Below are positions 1 through 8,098 of a stretch of 34,706 nt of DNA, one piece after another. A model generated the notes under the pieces. It did no database searches, was not told where the DNA came from, and saw only the letters and a program-made list of their open reading frames with translations. Source of the stretch: Gemmatimonadota bacterium (GTDB lineage Bacteria > Gemmatimonadota > Gemmatimonadetes > Longimicrobiales > Gaopeijiaceae); the NCBI GenBank assembly GCA_026706635.1, contig JAPOYJ010000021.1:1-34706 (forward strand), written 5' to 3'. The translations under genes were made by a program, and so were the position numbers. Each line of letters begins with the position of its first letter. Within the stretch, counting starts at the first letter, position 1.

Positions 1-39
1 AACTCCCTCAGCCTCCCACCTTGCCCTCGACCCGGAGGT

Positions 40-426
40 TCATGAATAAGGCAGGTTGAAATACGTGAATCGGGATCGGCCAGTCTCCTGCACCGAGAAG
101 CTCCCGTCCGCCTCCACAAACAAGTCCCCGAGGCTAACGAACTCCCCGGGGCCCTCTCCCTTTCCGCCCACGACGAAGAGAAGGGAGCCCTGGGGAGTCC
201 ACACGCTGACCTGCGAGTTTGCCGGATCCACGGCGAACACGCGATTCCGCTCTGGATCGGCCACTATGTGAGGCCATGAAAAGAACACGTCCTTGCCGGG
301 CGCATCGCCGAACCGGTACTCGCCCTCGGTCACCCACGTCGGCTGCTCCCCGTCAACCAGCGGCTGGGTGCCGCCATCCCCCACGATGCACAGAGAGAGA
401 ATCCAGAGGAGTTGCCAAGCCATCAT
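40..426 (-). pseudogene. Truncated secreted 6-bladed beta-propeller protein
   Basis: The 128-residue product begins with a hydrophobic signal segment (MMAWQLLWILSLCIVG). It continues with propeller-type sequence: a WPHIVADPERNRVFAVDP strand, a VSVWTPQGSLLFVVGGKGEGPGEF segment in two parts and a FTYFN strand. Proteins of this class are usually 350-400 residues with six blades, and only about one blade is present before a TGA at 42..40. Just past the stop another frame reads a short propeller-like stretch (LRVEGKVGG), so a frameshift or decay is likely. I placed the start at the ATG pair at 426/423; there is no clear ribosome-binding site. It lies 61 bases downstream of a complete propeller gene on the same strand and probably arose by duplication of it. 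The window edge hides the rest. Confidence 0.6.
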
Positions 427-487
427 ATCAGTCAATACTCGATTCCGCCAACTGTCTCTCGGGCCATGTCTCCTGGGACCTCCGCCA

Positions 488-1690
488 TCAGCGCACCAGC
501 GGGTAGACCTCGACCAGCTCCTCGTCAAGGGCACCCTTCGCCTGGACGAGTACCCGATCCTCCGCAATGTCCACGACAGCCATGTCCACCGGGACCGTGA
601 TCCGCATCTTGCGCTCCCACGCCTCGGTGAAGCCGACCCAGACCACCTCCTCCTGAAGCGGGTTGGGGTACTCCCGGATCCAGAGCAGGCCGTCGGCGCC
701 GCCCATCATGTCGGAAAAGGCGGGAAGGGTGGCGCGGGCCGGCAGGCCCTCGAGCAGGCGCTCCGATCTGAACTCGTTCGCCCGCAAGGTATCGCTGACG
801 AAGCGCACCCAGTCTGCCTCAGCGCTCTCTCGAGACTGCTCGAATGAGACGACTTCCACGGGGGTCCCGGCCTCGTCGTAACGCGTGATCGTGATCGAGT
901 CGGTATCCGCCAGGTAGGCGTAGCGATTGGTGACCGCGGCCACGGCAGTTCGTCCGAAGATCACGGGTTCCCAGCTACTAGATAAGTTGCCGGCGTCGTT
1001 AACCTCCCTCAACGCCCACTGCTCCTCACCGGGACGGGTGCCCTCGAAGACGATCTCCCCGTCAGAAAGACGAACGATCCTGTATGTCACCGGCCGCCGG
1101 ACCTCCATCGGCCCGGCGGGCAAGCGGTTACCCCACCATCCCATCTCCGAGATTTCGAGCAGCACGCTGTTTCCGAAGGCTCCAACGATCCTGCTCATTT
1201 GCGCACCGATCGGTCCGAGTTTCGTACCCCCGATGTACCTCCCGTGCGCGTCGAGCCGGGTTGCTCGCATGAGGAATGATGCGTCCGAGGTGACCAGTCC
1301 GTCCCCGTGACGAGCGATCGAGGCCAGATTCATGTAGTCGCCGGGACCTTCTCCCTTCCTGCCGTGCCGGGAAAGCAGCCGTCCCGCAGCATCCAGGATC
1401 AGGACTTCGTACGACATGACATCCGCGATAGCGATGCCGTCGCCGAAGAAGACCGCTCCGGAGACCCGGCCCAGCGGGAGAGACTCGTCCGCCCCCACCA
1501 CCAGGCTTGGTTCCGCAGCGATCCGGAACGACTCGTCACCAGGCCACGCGGAGAAGAGGTCCACAGCCGCCGGGCGACCCGTGGCCCCCGGGTCCGATGG
1601 CTCGTCCCGGTAGGCGGCGCAGAGCACCACGCAGGAAAGGGCGAGCATCGCTTTCGCCAGCGGTCTCCGTAGGGCGTCCGTCATGGCCAT
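488..1690 (-). CDS. Secreted 6-bladed beta-propeller protein
   Basis: This 400-residue protein has an N-terminal signal segment (residues about 12-26, ALSCVVLCAA) and then a repeated propeller pattern. Strands such as GIAIADVMSYEVLILDAAG are followed by RLLSRHGRKGEGPGDYMNL; the GRKGEGPGdf turn is the hallmark of the 6-bladed propeller family common in Bacteroidota and Gemmatimonadota. Full length for the family. The ATG at 1690 lies two bases after the TAG of the upstream DsbA-like gene, so the two are almost certainly co-transcribed and translationally coupled. The protein is probably exported to the periplasm or outer surface. Its molecular role is not known. In Bacteroidota, related propellers sit beside small secreted NVEALA peptides, which gives the small Cys-rich peptide in this operon a possible parallel. 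Confidence 0.8.
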   Translation of the reverse strand: MAMTDALRRPLAKAMLALSCVVLCAAYRDEPSDPGATGRPAAVDLFSAWPGDESFRIAAEPSLVVGADESLPLGRVSGAVFFGDGIAIADVMSYEVLILDAAGRLLSRHGRKGEGPGDYMNLASIARHGDGLVTSDASFLMRATRLDAHGRYIGGTKLGPIGAQMSRIVGAFGNSVLLEISEMGWWGNRLPAGPMEVRRPVTYRIVRLSDGEIVFEGTRPGEEQWALREVNDAGNLSSSWEPVIFGRTAVAAVTNRYAYLADTDSITITRYDEAGTPVEVVSFEQSRESAEADWVRFVSDTLRANEFRSERLLEGLPARATLPAFSDMMGGADGLLWIREYPNPLQEEVVWVGFTEAWERKMRITVPVDMAVVDIAEDRVLVQAKGALDEELVEVYPLVR

Positions 1691-1692
1691 CT

Positions 1693-2370
1693 CTAGCGCG
1701 AGCCTTCGATCAGTTCGAGGAGCTGTTCCTCGTCCGCGTACCCGACATGCCCCCCGAACTGGTAGAAGAACGTTGGGGTTGCGGTGACTCCCAGCGCGTC
1801 TCCGAGTCTCATGTCCTCCTCCAGCCTTCGTCCTGCCGCTTCGCTGCCGAGGCAGCGCTCGTACGCCGCCAGGTCACTCACGCCCGCCCTCTCGGCAAGC
1901 GCCCTCCAATCCCCCGTGTCCCGCCACTCCGTCGACCCGTAGAGCAGCGAATGTAGCTGTGGGAACCGTCCCTGCTCCTCGGCGCAGATCGCCGCGCTCG
2001 CGGCGGCCTCAGCCTTCGGGTGGATGGCTGTCAGCGGGTAGTGGCGGAATCCGATCGTAACCTCCGGGTGGGATTCCATGACATCCTCCAGGTGCGCGTG
2101 GGAATCTCGGCAGAACGGACACTCGTAGTCCCCGAACTCGATGATCATCGCGGCGCTCGCATCGACCGTGTCCATGCGAGCGCTCGTTGCCGCCAGCGCC
2201 TGCCAGTGCTCCTCAACGAGCACTGACAGGCGGGCCTCAGCGCGCCAAGCGGCGAAGCGCGTCCGGAGCGGGCTCTCGGGCAGGAACACGACGATGACGA
2301 GCACCGCCACGAGCCCGAGGTTGAGGAGATGGCCGGACCAGCTCGTTTCCTGCTTGTCCTTCCTGCCCAT
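1693..2370 (-). CDS. DsbA-like membrane-anchored thiol-disulfide oxidoreductase
   Basis: The 225-residue product has an N-terminal transmembrane anchor (about residues 15-31, LNLGLVAVLVIVVFLPE) followed by a DsbA/thioredoxin fold. The active site is Cys84-Pro-Phe-Cys87, in IIEFGDYECPFCRDSH. The helical insertion contains the AAAICAEEQGRF segment typical of DsbA-like family members, and the cis-proline loop is GVTATPTFF. It should act in the periplasm, oxidising or isomerising disulfides. Its start is three bases after the stop of the gene for a six-cysteine secreted peptide and its stop is two bases before the propeller gene. The obvious inference is that it folds or oxidises that peptide or the propellers. 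The substrate is not shown by the sequence. Confidence 0.85.
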   Translation of the reverse strand: MGRKDKQETSWSGHLLNLGLVAVLVIVVFLPESPLRTRFAAWRAEARLSVLVEEHWQALAATSARMDTVDASAAMIIEFGDYECPFCRDSHAHLEDVMESHPEVTIGFRHYPLTAIHPKAEAAASAAICAEEQGRFPQLHSLLYGSTEWRDTGDWRALAERAGVSDLAAYERCLGSEAAGRRLEEDMRLGDALGVTATPTFFYQFGGHVGYADEEQLLELIEGSR

Positions 2371-2373
2371 TCC

Positions 2374-2622
2374 CTATTTGGGGGGTTGCACGCATTTTCC
2401 CACTGCGACGAATCCGTTTCCGCAGCTAACCGCGCAGTTGTCTCCCTTGTCCCTGCAGACTTGGATCTGCCCGTCGGGGCAGGACAAGTGTCCGCCCTTC
2501 GGATCGCCATACACATCGAAATAATCGCATTTCATGGAACTCTCGGCGGCAACGGGCGTCGTGGCCAGCGCTGCGACTACTGCCGTCAGCAGTAGCTTCC
2601 TGATCGTCTTAACTCCGAACAT
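2374..2622 (-). CDS. Small secreted six-cysteine peptide
   Basis: I do not recognise this 82-residue protein. It has a clear Sec signal peptide: a basic start (MFGVKTIRK), a hydrophobic core LLLTAVVAALATTPV and a likely signal-peptidase site after VAA near residue 26. The mature part is about 56 residues with six cysteines (32, 48, 56, 63, 67, 77), enough for three disulfides, and ends GKCVQPPK. A strong ribosome-binding site AAGGAGG lies six bases before the ATG at 2622; this fixes the start and rejects longer upstream reading. It is the first gene of a compact operon with a DsbA-like enzyme and two propeller genes. Possible roles are a secreted effector, a bacteriocin-like or signalling peptide, or a propeller ligand; none is proven. 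Confidence 0.8.
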   Translation of the reverse strand: MFGVKTIRKLLLTAVVAALATTPVAAESSMKCDYFDVYGDPKGGHLSCPDGQIQVCRDKGDNCAVSCGNGFVAVGKCVQPPK

Positions 2623-2628
2623 GACATG

Positions 2629-2635
2629 CCTCCTT
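2629..2635 (-). promoter_or_regulatory. Strong Shine-Dalgarno site of the peptide gene
   Basis: On the minus strand AAGGAGG lies six bases before the ATG at 2622. It is the best ribosome-binding site of the whole operon, while the next two genes start two or three bases after the preceding stop without their own strong site. Expression of the operon is therefore probably led by the peptide. Confidence 0.8.
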
Positions 2636-4739: not shown

Positions 4740-4814
4740 TGCGGTCTCAATTCTGTTGATCCGCGGCGTCGAGTCGGCGCCGCAAGAGGCACTCACGGAC
4801 GCAGGAGGTGAGCC

Positions 4815-4997
4815 ATTCGCAAGTCAACCGTCAACCTGTTGGGAGCGGCGACGCTGGTCGCTGCCGGCCTGGCGCTGTTGCGGCAAGGCAACAATCGGCT
4901 TGAGCCCGTAGTCGAGGACAGGACCGAGAAGTTGACCCCGGACGAGAAAGTCCCTGCCGACATCAGGCTGGAGAGGCTCAGAGAGCTGGGCATCTAG
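4815..4997 (+). CDS. Small membrane peptide with apparent ATT start
   Basis: This 60-residue frame reads (M)RKSTVNLLGAATLVAAGL at the N-terminus, a basic start plus a hydrophobic segment like a transmembrane or signal anchor. It is followed by a polar, charged tail (EPVVEDRTEKLTPDEKV, then DIRLERLRELGI) and a TAG at 4995. No ATG, GTG or TTG exists before the conserved-looking basic start: an in-frame TGA lies six bases upstream. A strong ribosome-binding site GGAGGTGA ends three bases before ATT at 4815, so ATT is the best start, a rare codon known from infC. A base change or sequencing error from ATG is the alternative. Codon use is high in G/C at third positions, as in neighbouring genes. 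Function unknown. A strong hairpin lies downstream. Confidence 0.6.
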   Translation: MRKSTVNLLGAATLVAAGLALLRQGNNRLEPVVEDRTEKLTPDEKVPADIRLERLRELGI

Positions 4998-5059
4998 CTG
5001 CTAGCTAGCAGCGGACCAGGGTGGACGGAGCGCAAGCTCGCTCCGCCCTGACCGACCCG

Positions 5060-5095
5060 AGAGAGGGGGTGGCCGAAGGTGGTCGCCCCCTCTCT
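5060..5095. terminator. Bidirectional hairpin terminator
   Basis: AGAGAGGGGG (5060-5069) pairs perfectly with CCCCCTCTCT (5086-5095), extended inward by GGCC/GGTC around a GAAGGT loop. It sits between the convergent small membrane peptide and the ferredoxin gene. The T-run is weak on both sides (TTCAATT on the plus strand). Confidence 0.65.
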
Positions 5096-5107
5096 TCAAT
5101 TCCGGGA

Positions 5108-5341
5108 TCACTCGAAGTGGGAGATGTTCTTCTCGATGTAGTCGCTCCATTCGGGCGGCACATCCGTGTCCGGGAAGATCGCCTGCACAGGACACTCGGG
5201 CTCGCACGCCCCGCAGTCGATACACTCGTCCGGGTGGATGAGGTACTGGTCGTCGGCCTCGTAGATGCAGTCCACGGGGCAGACCTCGACGCAGCTCGCG
5301 TCCTTTGTGCCGATGCACGGCTCCGTGATTATGTAGGTCAC
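5108..5341 (-). CDS. fdxA: 7Fe ferredoxin ([3Fe-4S][4Fe-4S])
   Basis: This 77-residue ferredoxin carries the N-terminal pattern Cys9-x7-Cys17-x3-Cys21-Pro with a free Cys25, and a second cluster Cys40-x2-Cys43-x2-Cys46-x3-Cys50-Pro. This spacing is that of Azotobacter FdI-type seven-iron ferredoxins, in which Cys9, 17 and 50 hold the 3Fe cluster and Cys21, 40, 43 and 46 the 4Fe cluster. It is a soluble cytoplasmic electron carrier; the partner is not indicated. The start is GTG at 5341, preceded by AAGGGCGGAG, giving MTYIITEPC. It stands alone, with a hairpin terminator after it and a short dispersed-repeat copy about 30 bases upstream in its promoter region. Confidence 0.9.
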
Positions 5342-6897: not shown

Positions 6898-7344
6898 ATG
6901 GCCACCACTCCACACGGGGCAGGCGGGACCGATGGGCAATCGACCGACGTTGCCGCCCGCACGAACGAGCTCTACTGGAGCTCCGACGCGGGCGTCAACC
7001 GGCTGGCCCGGGAGCTGGGCCTCTCGAAGGGGGCGCTCTACCAGCTCGTCGCGCCCCTCTCGGCTGGCCTTCCGTGCCCGCGCTGCGGGGCCGAGATGGG
7101 GTACTCGAACCGGACCACTCGCGACCGCGGGCTGGTTTCGTGCGCGGAGTGCGGGCTGGAGGACCAGGCCGAGCGGATCCGGGCGCATCGGCCCGCGAAG
7201 GGGGAGGGGGAGATCGAGGGAGGTGCCGACCTCTCGCTGGCGAAGCTGGTGGTGGTATCGGCCTTCGCCGGCGCAGCCGTCGCCTTCCTGCTGAGCGCTG
7301 CACTGAAGAGGAGGACAGGAGAACATGATCCAGATGGCATCTAG
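6898..7344 (+). CDS. HTH / zinc-ribbon membrane-anchored protein
   Basis: The 148-residue protein contains a short helix-turn-helix (about residues 30-52, GVNRLARELGLSKGALYQLV). A zinc ribbon follows with CPRCGAEM and, about 20 residues later, CAECGLE. There is an acidic linker and one C-terminal transmembrane helix (LAKLVVVSAFAGAAVAFLLSAAL in two parts), with a short basic tail. This looks like a membrane-tethered DNA-binding or regulatory protein. I do not know a named family. The start at 6898 has no ribosome-binding site and is probably leaderless. The end overlaps the next gene by 20 bases, implying coupling with the DsbA-like lipoprotein. Confidence 0.7.
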   Translation: MATTPHGAGGTDGQSTDVAARTNELYWSSDAGVNRLARELGLSKGALYQLVAPLSAGLPCPRCGAEMGYSNRTTRDRGLVSCAECGLEDQAERIRAHRPAKGEGEIEGGADLSLAKLVVVSAFAGAAVAFLLSAALKRRTGEHDPDGI

Positions 7345-8098
7345 CCGTCCATCGCAGCTGTGGACGGCCCCTCTGCTGGTCGCTGCGCTCGGGTGTGGAG
7401 GGAGCGGGGCTGGCGAGAGCGCGGGCAGCGGCGACGCGCCCGCAGTCTCCGAGGGGCGGAGCGCTATCCCCGCCTCCGGCCTCACCCCGGAGCTCCTTGC
7501 CGACAGCGCCCTCTCGCGACGGCCCGGAGCCCACGAGATCCCGCTGCACGAGCTGGGCTTCCTGTACGGGTCGCCGGAAGCTCCGATCTCGGTCGTCGAG
7601 TTCAGCGACTACGGGTGCGGGTACTGTCGCCGCTTCCAGATCGAGACCTTCCCCACCCTGCTGAGCGACTTCATCGAACCGGGGCGGGTGAAGTGGAGGT
7701 ATGTGACGTACCTCAGCGGGGCCTTCCCCAAGAGCCCCTCGGCCGCCATGGTGGCCGAGTGCGCCGGCGAGCAGGGGCTGTTCGCGCCCGTCAGCCGTCT
7801 GATCTACGAACATCAGAGGGTGTGGCGGCGCGGCGCGGATCCGGTCGCGGCGGTCACGGCGCTGGCGACCGAGGCTGGCGCCGACGAGGGCGAGATCGAG
7901 GCCTGCGTCTCCGAACGGCGACCGATGGCCCGCCTCCGGGCCGGCATCGCCGCCGGCAGGCGACTCGGAGTGCGCGGGACGCCCTACTTCCTCGTCGAGG
8001 GCGCCCCGGCACCGGGAGCCCAGCCGCTGGAGTGGTGGGTCAGGATCTTCACTGCCATCGAGGCCGAGATCGAGAGCGGGGCGGGCGACGCGTCGTGA
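7325..8098 (+). CDS. DsbA-like thiol oxidoreductase lipoprotein
   Basis: The 257-residue product begins with a lipoprotein signal (LLVAALGC, lipobox cysteine at residue 24), then a low-complexity Gly/Ser/Ala linker. A thioredoxin-fold domain with Cys98-Gly-Tyr-Cys101 follows (VVEFSDYGCGYCRRF), and a cis-proline loop GVRGTPYFLVEG near the end. It would work at the periplasmic face of a membrane as a disulfide oxidase or isomerase. The start ATG 7325 follows AGGAG and overlaps the end of the HTH/zinc-ribbon gene. Its last 50 bases overlap the convergent membrane protein gene on the other strand. It differs from the DsbA-like protein at 1693-2370 in having a lipid anchor and a CGYC rather than CPFC site. 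Confidence 0.85.
   Translation: MIQMASSRPSQLWTAPLLVAALGCGGSGAGESAGSGDAPAVSEGRSAIPASGLTPELLADSALSRRPGAHEIPLHELGFLYGSPEAPISVVEFSDYGCGYCRRFQIETFPTLLSDFIEPGRVKWRYVTYLSGAFPKSPSAAMVAECAGEQGLFAPVSRLIYEHQRVWRRGADPVAAVTALATEAGADEGEIEACVSERRPMARLRAGIAAGRRLGVRGTPYFLVEGAPAPGAQPLEWWVRIFTAIEAEIESGAGDAS

What the first reader, a model, noticed from the sequence alone, without database searches (positions are those of the whole stretch)
40..2635. Operon of a six-cysteine secreted peptide, its own DsbA-like enzyme and beta-propeller proteins
The sequence shows four same-strand genes: an 82-residue Sec-exported peptide with six cysteines and the strongest ribosome-binding site, a membrane-anchored CPFC thiol oxidoreductase three bases later, a full propeller two bases later, and a truncated propeller. 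Known context: in Bacteroidota, small NVEALA peptides are coded beside 6-bladed propellers. Inference: this is a parallel system in which the enzyme forms the peptide's disulfides and the propeller exports, binds or senses it. I know of no description for this peptide.
Basis: partly seen in the sequence, partly recalled or inferred. Interest (0 to 1): 0.78.

Follow-up and report, generated by a model that had tools for sequence, protein, structure and literature searches.

The report
Disulfide-rich secreted peptides with DsbA-propeller partners
A soil and marine bacterial phylum carries many copies of a gene set that pairs a tiny, fast-changing secreted peptide full of cysteines with its own disulfide-making enzyme and a propeller-shaped protein, apparently an undescribed system for making and using disulfide-locked peptides.

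Summary
In detail: minus-strand genes for an 82-aa Sec-type peptide (2374-2622, six Cys), a membrane-anchored DsbA-like enzyme (1693-2370, CPFC, cis-Pro) and a 6-bladed propeller (488-1690), 3 and 2 bp apart. The fourth gene (40-426) is a propeller interrupted by a repeated-element end at base ~55, not a designed short propeller. Searching by the enzyme alone shows a far larger system: 58 of 85 enzyme loci across the class have a small exported Cys-rich peptide on the same strand within 3 kb (71 same strand, 5 opposite; 0 in 400 kb random DNA; 5 of 80 generic DsbA loci, two credible). 64 of 67 distinct peptides have an even Cys number. Enzyme and propeller are fused in ten ORFs, each with a peptide nearby, and fused propellers have no cysteine, so the peptide is the likely substrate. 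VKOR can reoxidise the enzyme. Disulfide formation is well supported but not shown; the propeller's job and the peptide's purpose remain inference. No family model or paper found describes it.

The parts
2374..2622 (-). Six-cysteine secreted peptide gene, 82 aa (signal peptide residues 1-26 = 2545-2622; predicted mature peptide residues 27-82 = 2377-2544)
   Evidence: signal part nearly invariant, six Cys in each of seven homologues; cleavage site inferred from the AxA motif
2629..2635 (-). Ribosome-binding site AAGGAGG, 6 nt before the peptide ATG
   Evidence: the same or nearly the same motif at all six operons checked
1693..2370 (-). Membrane-anchored DsbA-like thiol oxidoreductase, 225 aa; CPFC at 2110-2121; cis-Pro loop TP (residues 198-199)
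488..1690 (-). 6-bladed beta-propeller, 400 aa, exported; only cysteines at residues 20 and 24 in the signal region
40..426 (-). Second, diverged propeller gene interrupted after residue ~124 by a repeated element; the stop codon comes from the element
1..55 (.). End of a repeated element (insertion-sequence-like), present at the ends of at least six other contigs of this genome
2753..2781 (-). Promoter-like site (TTGCGA-17-GATAAT) upstream of the peptide gene; consensus match only

Best explanation
A dedicated oxidative-folding module for secreted peptides. The peptide goes to the periplasm by Sec and loses its signal peptide. The membrane-anchored DsbA-like enzyme, recharged by the genome's VKOR, forms or sorts its three disulfides. 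The exported propeller, which can be fused to the enzyme and has no cysteines of its own, binds the peptide, either holding it for the enzyme or acting as its cognate receptor or carrier. The folded, mostly acidic, fast-diverging peptide then acts outside the cytoplasm, most likely in interactions between bacteria or with the environment. Shown here: the gene set, its conservation, cysteine conservation and parity, enzyme-propeller fusion, cysteine-free fused propellers, VKOR present and DsbB absent. Inferred: disulfide formation in the peptide, propeller binding, and the final role.
For: All six other close homologous loci have the order peptide > DsbA-like > propeller on one strand. Six Cys in every homologue; signal peptide dN mostly 0.05-0.2 and DsbA about 0.08 against mature peptide 0.16-0.88 among distinct loci. 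Enzyme-anchored survey: 34/45 and 24/40 loci have a same-strand small exported Cys-rich ORF within 3 kb; 71 same strand against 5 opposite; 0 in 400 kb random DNA; generic DsbA loci 5/80, and the two credible ones are those that also have a propeller. 64/67 non-redundant peptides have an even Cys number, p 3e-16. 60 of 71 lie upstream of the enzyme. Ten enzyme-propeller fusions, each with a peptide nearby. Zero Cys in the fused propeller part; window propeller none after the signal. CxxC present in every full-length family member and a TP loop in most. VKOR in the window's genome and in 22 of 26 genomes, DsbB in 0 of 26. Fusion model: membrane helix, ScsC/DsbA-type domain (Z about 20-22) and NHL-type propeller (Z about 22).
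Against: No direct evidence of expression, secretion or disulfides. The enzyme's nearest solved relatives include ScsC-type proteins, some of which are isomerases or linked to copper, so it may isomerise rather than oxidise. 27 of 85 loci had no peptide by this scan, though at least two of those (L085, L091) have a Cys-rich ORF that narrowly missed the filter. Propellers are abundant, so part of the propeller adjacency is background, and about ten class-wide peptide loci have no propeller. Nothing tests the final function.
Confidence: 0.68

Rival explanations
1. The DsbA-like enzyme serves the propeller, as DsbL serves the 6-bladed arylsulfate sulfotransferase AssT in uropathogenic E. coli; the peptide is incidental.
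For: Adjacent and fused enzyme and propeller genes; a known precedent for a dedicated DsbA paired with a 6-bladed propeller (Grimshaw et al. 2008, cited in PMC4460558; that AssT is a 6-bladed propeller is my own knowledge).
Against: Fused propellers have zero cysteines; the window propeller has none after its signal; 47 of 66 separate propellers have at most one. Peptides occur with the enzyme even without a propeller.
Confidence: 0.04
2. The enzyme is a reductase, isomerase or metal-stress protein of ScsC type and the peptides are metal-binding, metallothionein-like.
For: Best profile matches in the PDB include ScsC and copper-resistance thioredoxins; peptides are Cys-rich, about 14% of mature residues, and mostly acidic.
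Against: Near-perfect even Cys parity points to paired cysteines; cysteine spacing differs between subfamilies instead of keeping a metal motif; VKOR is available as an oxidant.
Confidence: 0.12
3. A bacteriocin-like weapon: the peptide is a disulfide-stabilised antibacterial and the propeller is an immunity or recognition protein (a version of the best explanation with this final role).
For: Conserved leader with fast-changing core, tandem copies with divergent cores, patchy presence among close relatives, decayed and duplicated cassettes, precedents in sublancin and glycocins with dedicated thiol-disulfide enzymes (PMC6405829).
Against: No dedicated exporter next to the window-type operons; peptides are acidic, only 1 of 71 has a net charge of +2 or more, unlike most membrane-active bacteriocins.
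Confidence: 0.3
4. A signalling or self-recognition peptide sensed by its cognate propeller (a version of the best explanation with this final role).
For: Neighbouring, co-inherited propeller with intermediate divergence (propeller dN 0.10-0.21); animal 6-bladed propellers such as LRP6 bind disulfide-rich ligands (titles of structural matches 8dvm and 5gje; analogy only).
Against: No regulator or receptor kinase is conserved in the neighbourhood; no interaction tested.
Confidence: 0.25
5. Chance or hitch-hiking neighbourhood of abundant gene families, with no functional link.
For: Propellers are an expanded family: a random gene has one on the same strand within 3 kb 16% of the time.
Against: Propeller near the enzyme in 35/45 and 20/40 loci, gene fusions, and a peptide-enzyme linkage that is absent from random DNA.
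Confidence: 0.03

Closest known systems
Sublancin/glycocin clusters (sunA with BdbA/BdbB thiol-disulfide oxidoreductases)
   Same: A small disulfide-bonded secreted peptide encoded beside its own thiol-disulfide enzymes (PMC6405829).
   Different: Gram-positive, ABC-peptidase export, S-glycosylation, no propeller; the peptides here match no family model.
E. coli heat-stable enterotoxin II pathway (Sec > DsbA > MacAB-TolC)
   Same: Small Sec-exported peptide whose disulfides are made in the periplasm by DsbA, then sent out across the outer membrane (PMC5985334).
   Different: Uses the general DsbA and a general pump; no dedicated enzyme or propeller; no family match to our peptides; MacB-like permeases sit next to only a few of our loci.
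AssT-DsbL-DsbI operon of uropathogenic E. coli
   Same: A 6-bladed propeller with its own DsbA-like oxidase in one operon (reference in PMC4460558; the fold of AssT from my own knowledge).
   Different: There the propeller is the substrate; here the propellers lack cysteines and a cysteine peptide is present.
Epsilonproteobacterial DsbI (DsbB-like membrane domain plus C-terminal beta-propeller)
   Same: A disulfide-bond enzyme physically joined to a periplasmic propeller of unknown role (PMC4460558).
   Different: The redox half is DsbB-like, not DsbA-like; no dedicated peptide; PF02600 absent from our genomes.
Bacteroidota NVEALA peptides beside 6-bladed propellers (PF14055)
   Different: PF14055 does not match the peptide and is absent from 101 genomes of the class; a DsbA-like partner for NVEALA was not tested.

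Membership tests
DsbA-like thioredoxin family (PF01323/PF13462) | Family profile match over its cut-off | tested here: met
   PF13462 E 2.4e-14, 54.3 bits (cut-off 23.2); PF01323 E 6.8e-13, 49.3 bits (cut-off 25.6)
DsbA-like thioredoxin family (PF01323/PF13462) | CxxC active site and cis-proline loop | tested here: met
   CPFC at residues 84-87 and TP at 198-199; both Cys and TP invariant in a 22-member alignment
DsbA-like thioredoxin family (PF01323/PF13462) | Oxidase (rather than reductase or isomerase) activity | not testable with these tools
   Needs biochemistry; VKOR present and DsbB absent fit oxidation
DUF5128 6-bladed propeller (PF17170) | Profile match over the cut-off | tested here: inconclusive
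   Full propeller 22.3 bits against cut-off 22.9; interrupted propeller 26.8 bits
DUF5128 6-bladed propeller (PF17170) | 6-bladed NHL-type propeller fold | tested here: inconclusive
   Model of the fused relative L077: Z 22.4, rmsd 3.8 over 266 residues to the Brat NHL domain. The window propeller itself was not modelled; sequence search gives NHL proteins at E 0.0008
NVEALA peptide family (PF14055) | Profile match | tested here: not met
   No match in the peptide; none in 101 genomes of the class, while the Bacteroides control rings
Sublancin/glycocin-type bacteriocin cluster | Peptidase-ABC transporter and glycosyltransferase beside the peptide | tested here: not met
   None recognised among the gene calls in the first 12 kb of the window, nor among the most frequent neighbour families
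Beta-defensin (PF00711) | Profile match over the cut-off and six-Cys defensin framework | tested here: not met
   15.1 bits against cut-off 21, covering only residues 54-80 with four of the six cysteines

The most novel reading that the evidence does not exclude
A phylum-wide, previously undescribed class of diversifying disulfide-locked peptides, each made by a dedicated membrane DsbA and recognised by a cognate beta-propeller: a bacterial counterpart of animal Cys-rich ligand and propeller-receptor pairs, used for competition or self-recognition.
Probability: 0.35. Interest if true: 0.88.

Novelty: new variant of a known kind. Interest (0 to 1): 0.7.

Why it matters
If right, a mostly uncultured phylum (Gemmatimonadota: soils, sediments, sponges) holds a large untapped pool of genetically encoded disulfide-rich peptides together with the enzyme that folds each one. 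It gives a direct handle on three open questions: what the very numerous 6-bladed propellers of these bacteria do, why a Dsb enzyme would be joined to a propeller, and how bacteria make dedicated oxidative-folding lines for single peptides. The peptide-enzyme pairs are small and can be tested in laboratory E. coli.

Tried and rejected
Weak peptide hits in other genomes (E 0.009 and above; weak hits) are mostly chance: the best one (G030) lies inside a formyltransferase-like gene. NVEALA and defensin membership rejected. The DsbA-serves-the-propeller model rejected by cysteine counts. Horizontal transfer was suspected because L071, assigned to another genus, is 99.2% identical to L021 over a whole 6.5-kb contig, but misbinning explains it equally well, so it is not claimed and L071 is not independent evidence. 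L131, named Gammaproteobacteria, is a 3.8-kb high-coverage contig and may also be misbinned. Export genes near some loci (RND, MacB, CarboxypepD_reg) are not consistent, and no random control was tallied, so they are not built into the model. The AlphaFold model of the peptide has pLDDT 57 and was not used. Positive selection is not claimed: dN/dS exceeds 1 in only some pairs, on few sites, with high dS and uncertain alignment. Literature searches found no description, but the library lacks most subscription journals.

Full report
WHAT IS THERE. On the minus strand at the start of the window lie a peptide gene (2374-2622), a DsbA-like gene (1693-2370) and a propeller gene (488-1690), separated by 3 and 2 bp, with AAGGAGG ahead of the peptide. 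The peptide has a Sec-type signal and six cysteines. The DsbA-like protein has one membrane segment, CPFC and a TP loop. The fourth gene, 40-426, is not a short propeller by design: its homologues run to 400-470 aa and match it to residue ~124, exactly where the first 55 bp of the window begin. Those 55 bp recur at the ends of at least six other contigs of the genome. A repeated element, probably an insertion sequence, cut the gene and broke the assembly.

WHERE IT COMES FROM. The window is contig 6 of a 2.8-Mb genome. The phylum is therefore Gemmatimonadota; the genus is not known to me.

Homologues of the peptide occur at two loci in each of two genomes of the genus (G001, G019), at one in a third (G013), and at one in a genome assigned to another genus (G227, near-identical to a G019 locus and possibly misbinned). 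Every one is followed by the enzyme and then a propeller on the same strand. All carry six cysteines; five columns are invariant in the automatic alignment and the first cysteine is offset only by gap placement. The enzyme is 82-86% identical to the window's and the propeller about 65%; the whole peptide precursor is about 50%, with a nearly fixed signal and a variable core. Nonsynonymous change is mostly 0.05-0.2 in the signal peptide, about 0.08 in the enzyme, 0.10-0.21 in the propeller and 0.16-0.88 in the mature peptide among distinct loci (the two closest copies, L018 and L019, are lower throughout). Solo propellers with leftover enzyme tails show that the cassette duplicates and decays.

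A MUCH LARGER SYSTEM. I then searched by the enzyme alone, which does not favour peptides. Forty-five loci from relatives and 40 spread over the class were scanned for small ORFs with a ribosome-binding site, a hydrophobic signal and at least four cysteines. 34 and 24 of them have one within 3 kb on the same strand; in all 71 peptides on the enzyme's strand and 5 on the other. Seven of the first 45 loci had been found through the peptide itself; without them it is 27 of 38. Some loci within the sets are close relatives of each other. The same scan found none in 400 kb of random DNA from two complete genomes and 5 in 80 loci of generic DsbA-like proteins from many phyla; two of those five are credible, L131 and L167, and both also have a propeller. 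The window itself holds a second DsbA-type gene (7325-8098) with no peptide near it. Of 67 peptides non-redundant at 80%, 64 have an even number of cysteines, mostly six or eight (p 3e-16 against even odds). The subfamilies differ in sequence and spacing, and ten tested members match no Pfam or NCBIfam family over its cut-off. Tandem peptides share a leader and differ in the core (L098, L093, L086, L076).

THE PROPELLER LINK. Ten ORFs join the enzyme (N-terminal, with its membrane segment) to a propeller (C-terminal); all ten have a peptide on the same strand nearby, eight of them within about 450 bp (in L109 the peptide gene overlaps the fusion start by 4 bp). The fused propellers contain no cysteine, and the window propeller none after its signal, so the propeller is not the enzyme's substrate. 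This separates the system from the AssT-DsbL pair of E. coli. The model of one fusion gives a membrane helix, an ScsC/DsbA-like domain and an NHL-type 6-bladed propeller. Caution: propellers are an expanded family here, and a random gene has a 16% chance of a same-strand propeller within 3 kb, against 35/45 and 20/40 observed.

HOW IT PROBABLY WORKS. Sec export, signal cleavage, disulfide formation by the anchored enzyme, reoxidation by VKOR (present in the window's genome and in 22 of 26 genomes; DsbB in none), with the propeller binding the peptide. The enzyme could be an isomerase instead: its nearest solved relatives include ScsC-type proteins. Mature peptides are acidic, median net charge -5, only one of 71 at +2, which argues against a classic cationic membrane-active peptide. 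In some sister lineages RND, MacB-like or large CarboxypepD_reg outer-membrane-type genes lie alongside; MacB pumps are known to export small disulfide-bonded peptides (PMC5985334), but this neighbourhood is not general and was not tested against a control.

NOVELTY. No held paper describes it and no family model names the peptides. The principle, a dedicated thiol-disulfide enzyme for a secreted peptide, is known from sublancin and glycocins. The propeller partner, the DsbA-propeller fusion and the phylum-wide scale appear new. I rate it a new variant of a known kind, with a fair chance of being more.

Noticed in passing
window 1-55: Repeated element end that also terminates contigs C4, C53, C55, C71, C74 and C83 of the same genome; it interrupts the propeller gene at 40-426. 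A possible transposase fragment on contig C11 (L299), near a partial copy, looks IS1380-like by eye only.
   Followed up: partly
window 7325-8098 (+): A second DsbA-type (lipoprotein-like) thioredoxin gene with no Cys-rich peptide or propeller beside it; serves as an internal negative control.
   Followed up: partly
L018 13031-13174 (-): Chimeric small ORF: start of an Hsp20-type small heat-shock gene joined to the last ~20 residues of the DsbA-like enzyme, next to a solo propeller; an intact Hsp20-type gene lies at 4774-5229. A recombination scar of the cassette.
   Followed up: no
L082, L091, L092, L093: In a sister family the enzyme and peptide genes are near an HlyD-type adaptor, with RND pump genes in most and TolC-type genes at L091 and L092; possible export route or shared ancestral locus.
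   Followed up: partly
L088, L094, L248; L085, L099, L244, L247, L250: MacB/FtsX-like permeases, or very large (up to about 1190 aa) proteins that appear CarboxypepD_reg-type, beside peptide-enzyme pairs, with a small PDZ-like gene in some (family tally: MacB_PCD 4, CarboxypepD_reg 8 of 149 neighbours).
   Followed up: partly
L121 (G021) and other random control regions: Tandem arrays of 6-bladed propellers with no Cys-rich peptide nearby; 24 propeller ORFs in 400 kb, so this family is strongly expanded in the genus.
   Followed up: no
L021 and L071: A 6.5-kb contig assigned to a different genus is 99.2% identical to part of L021: recent transfer or misbinned contig.
   Followed up: partly
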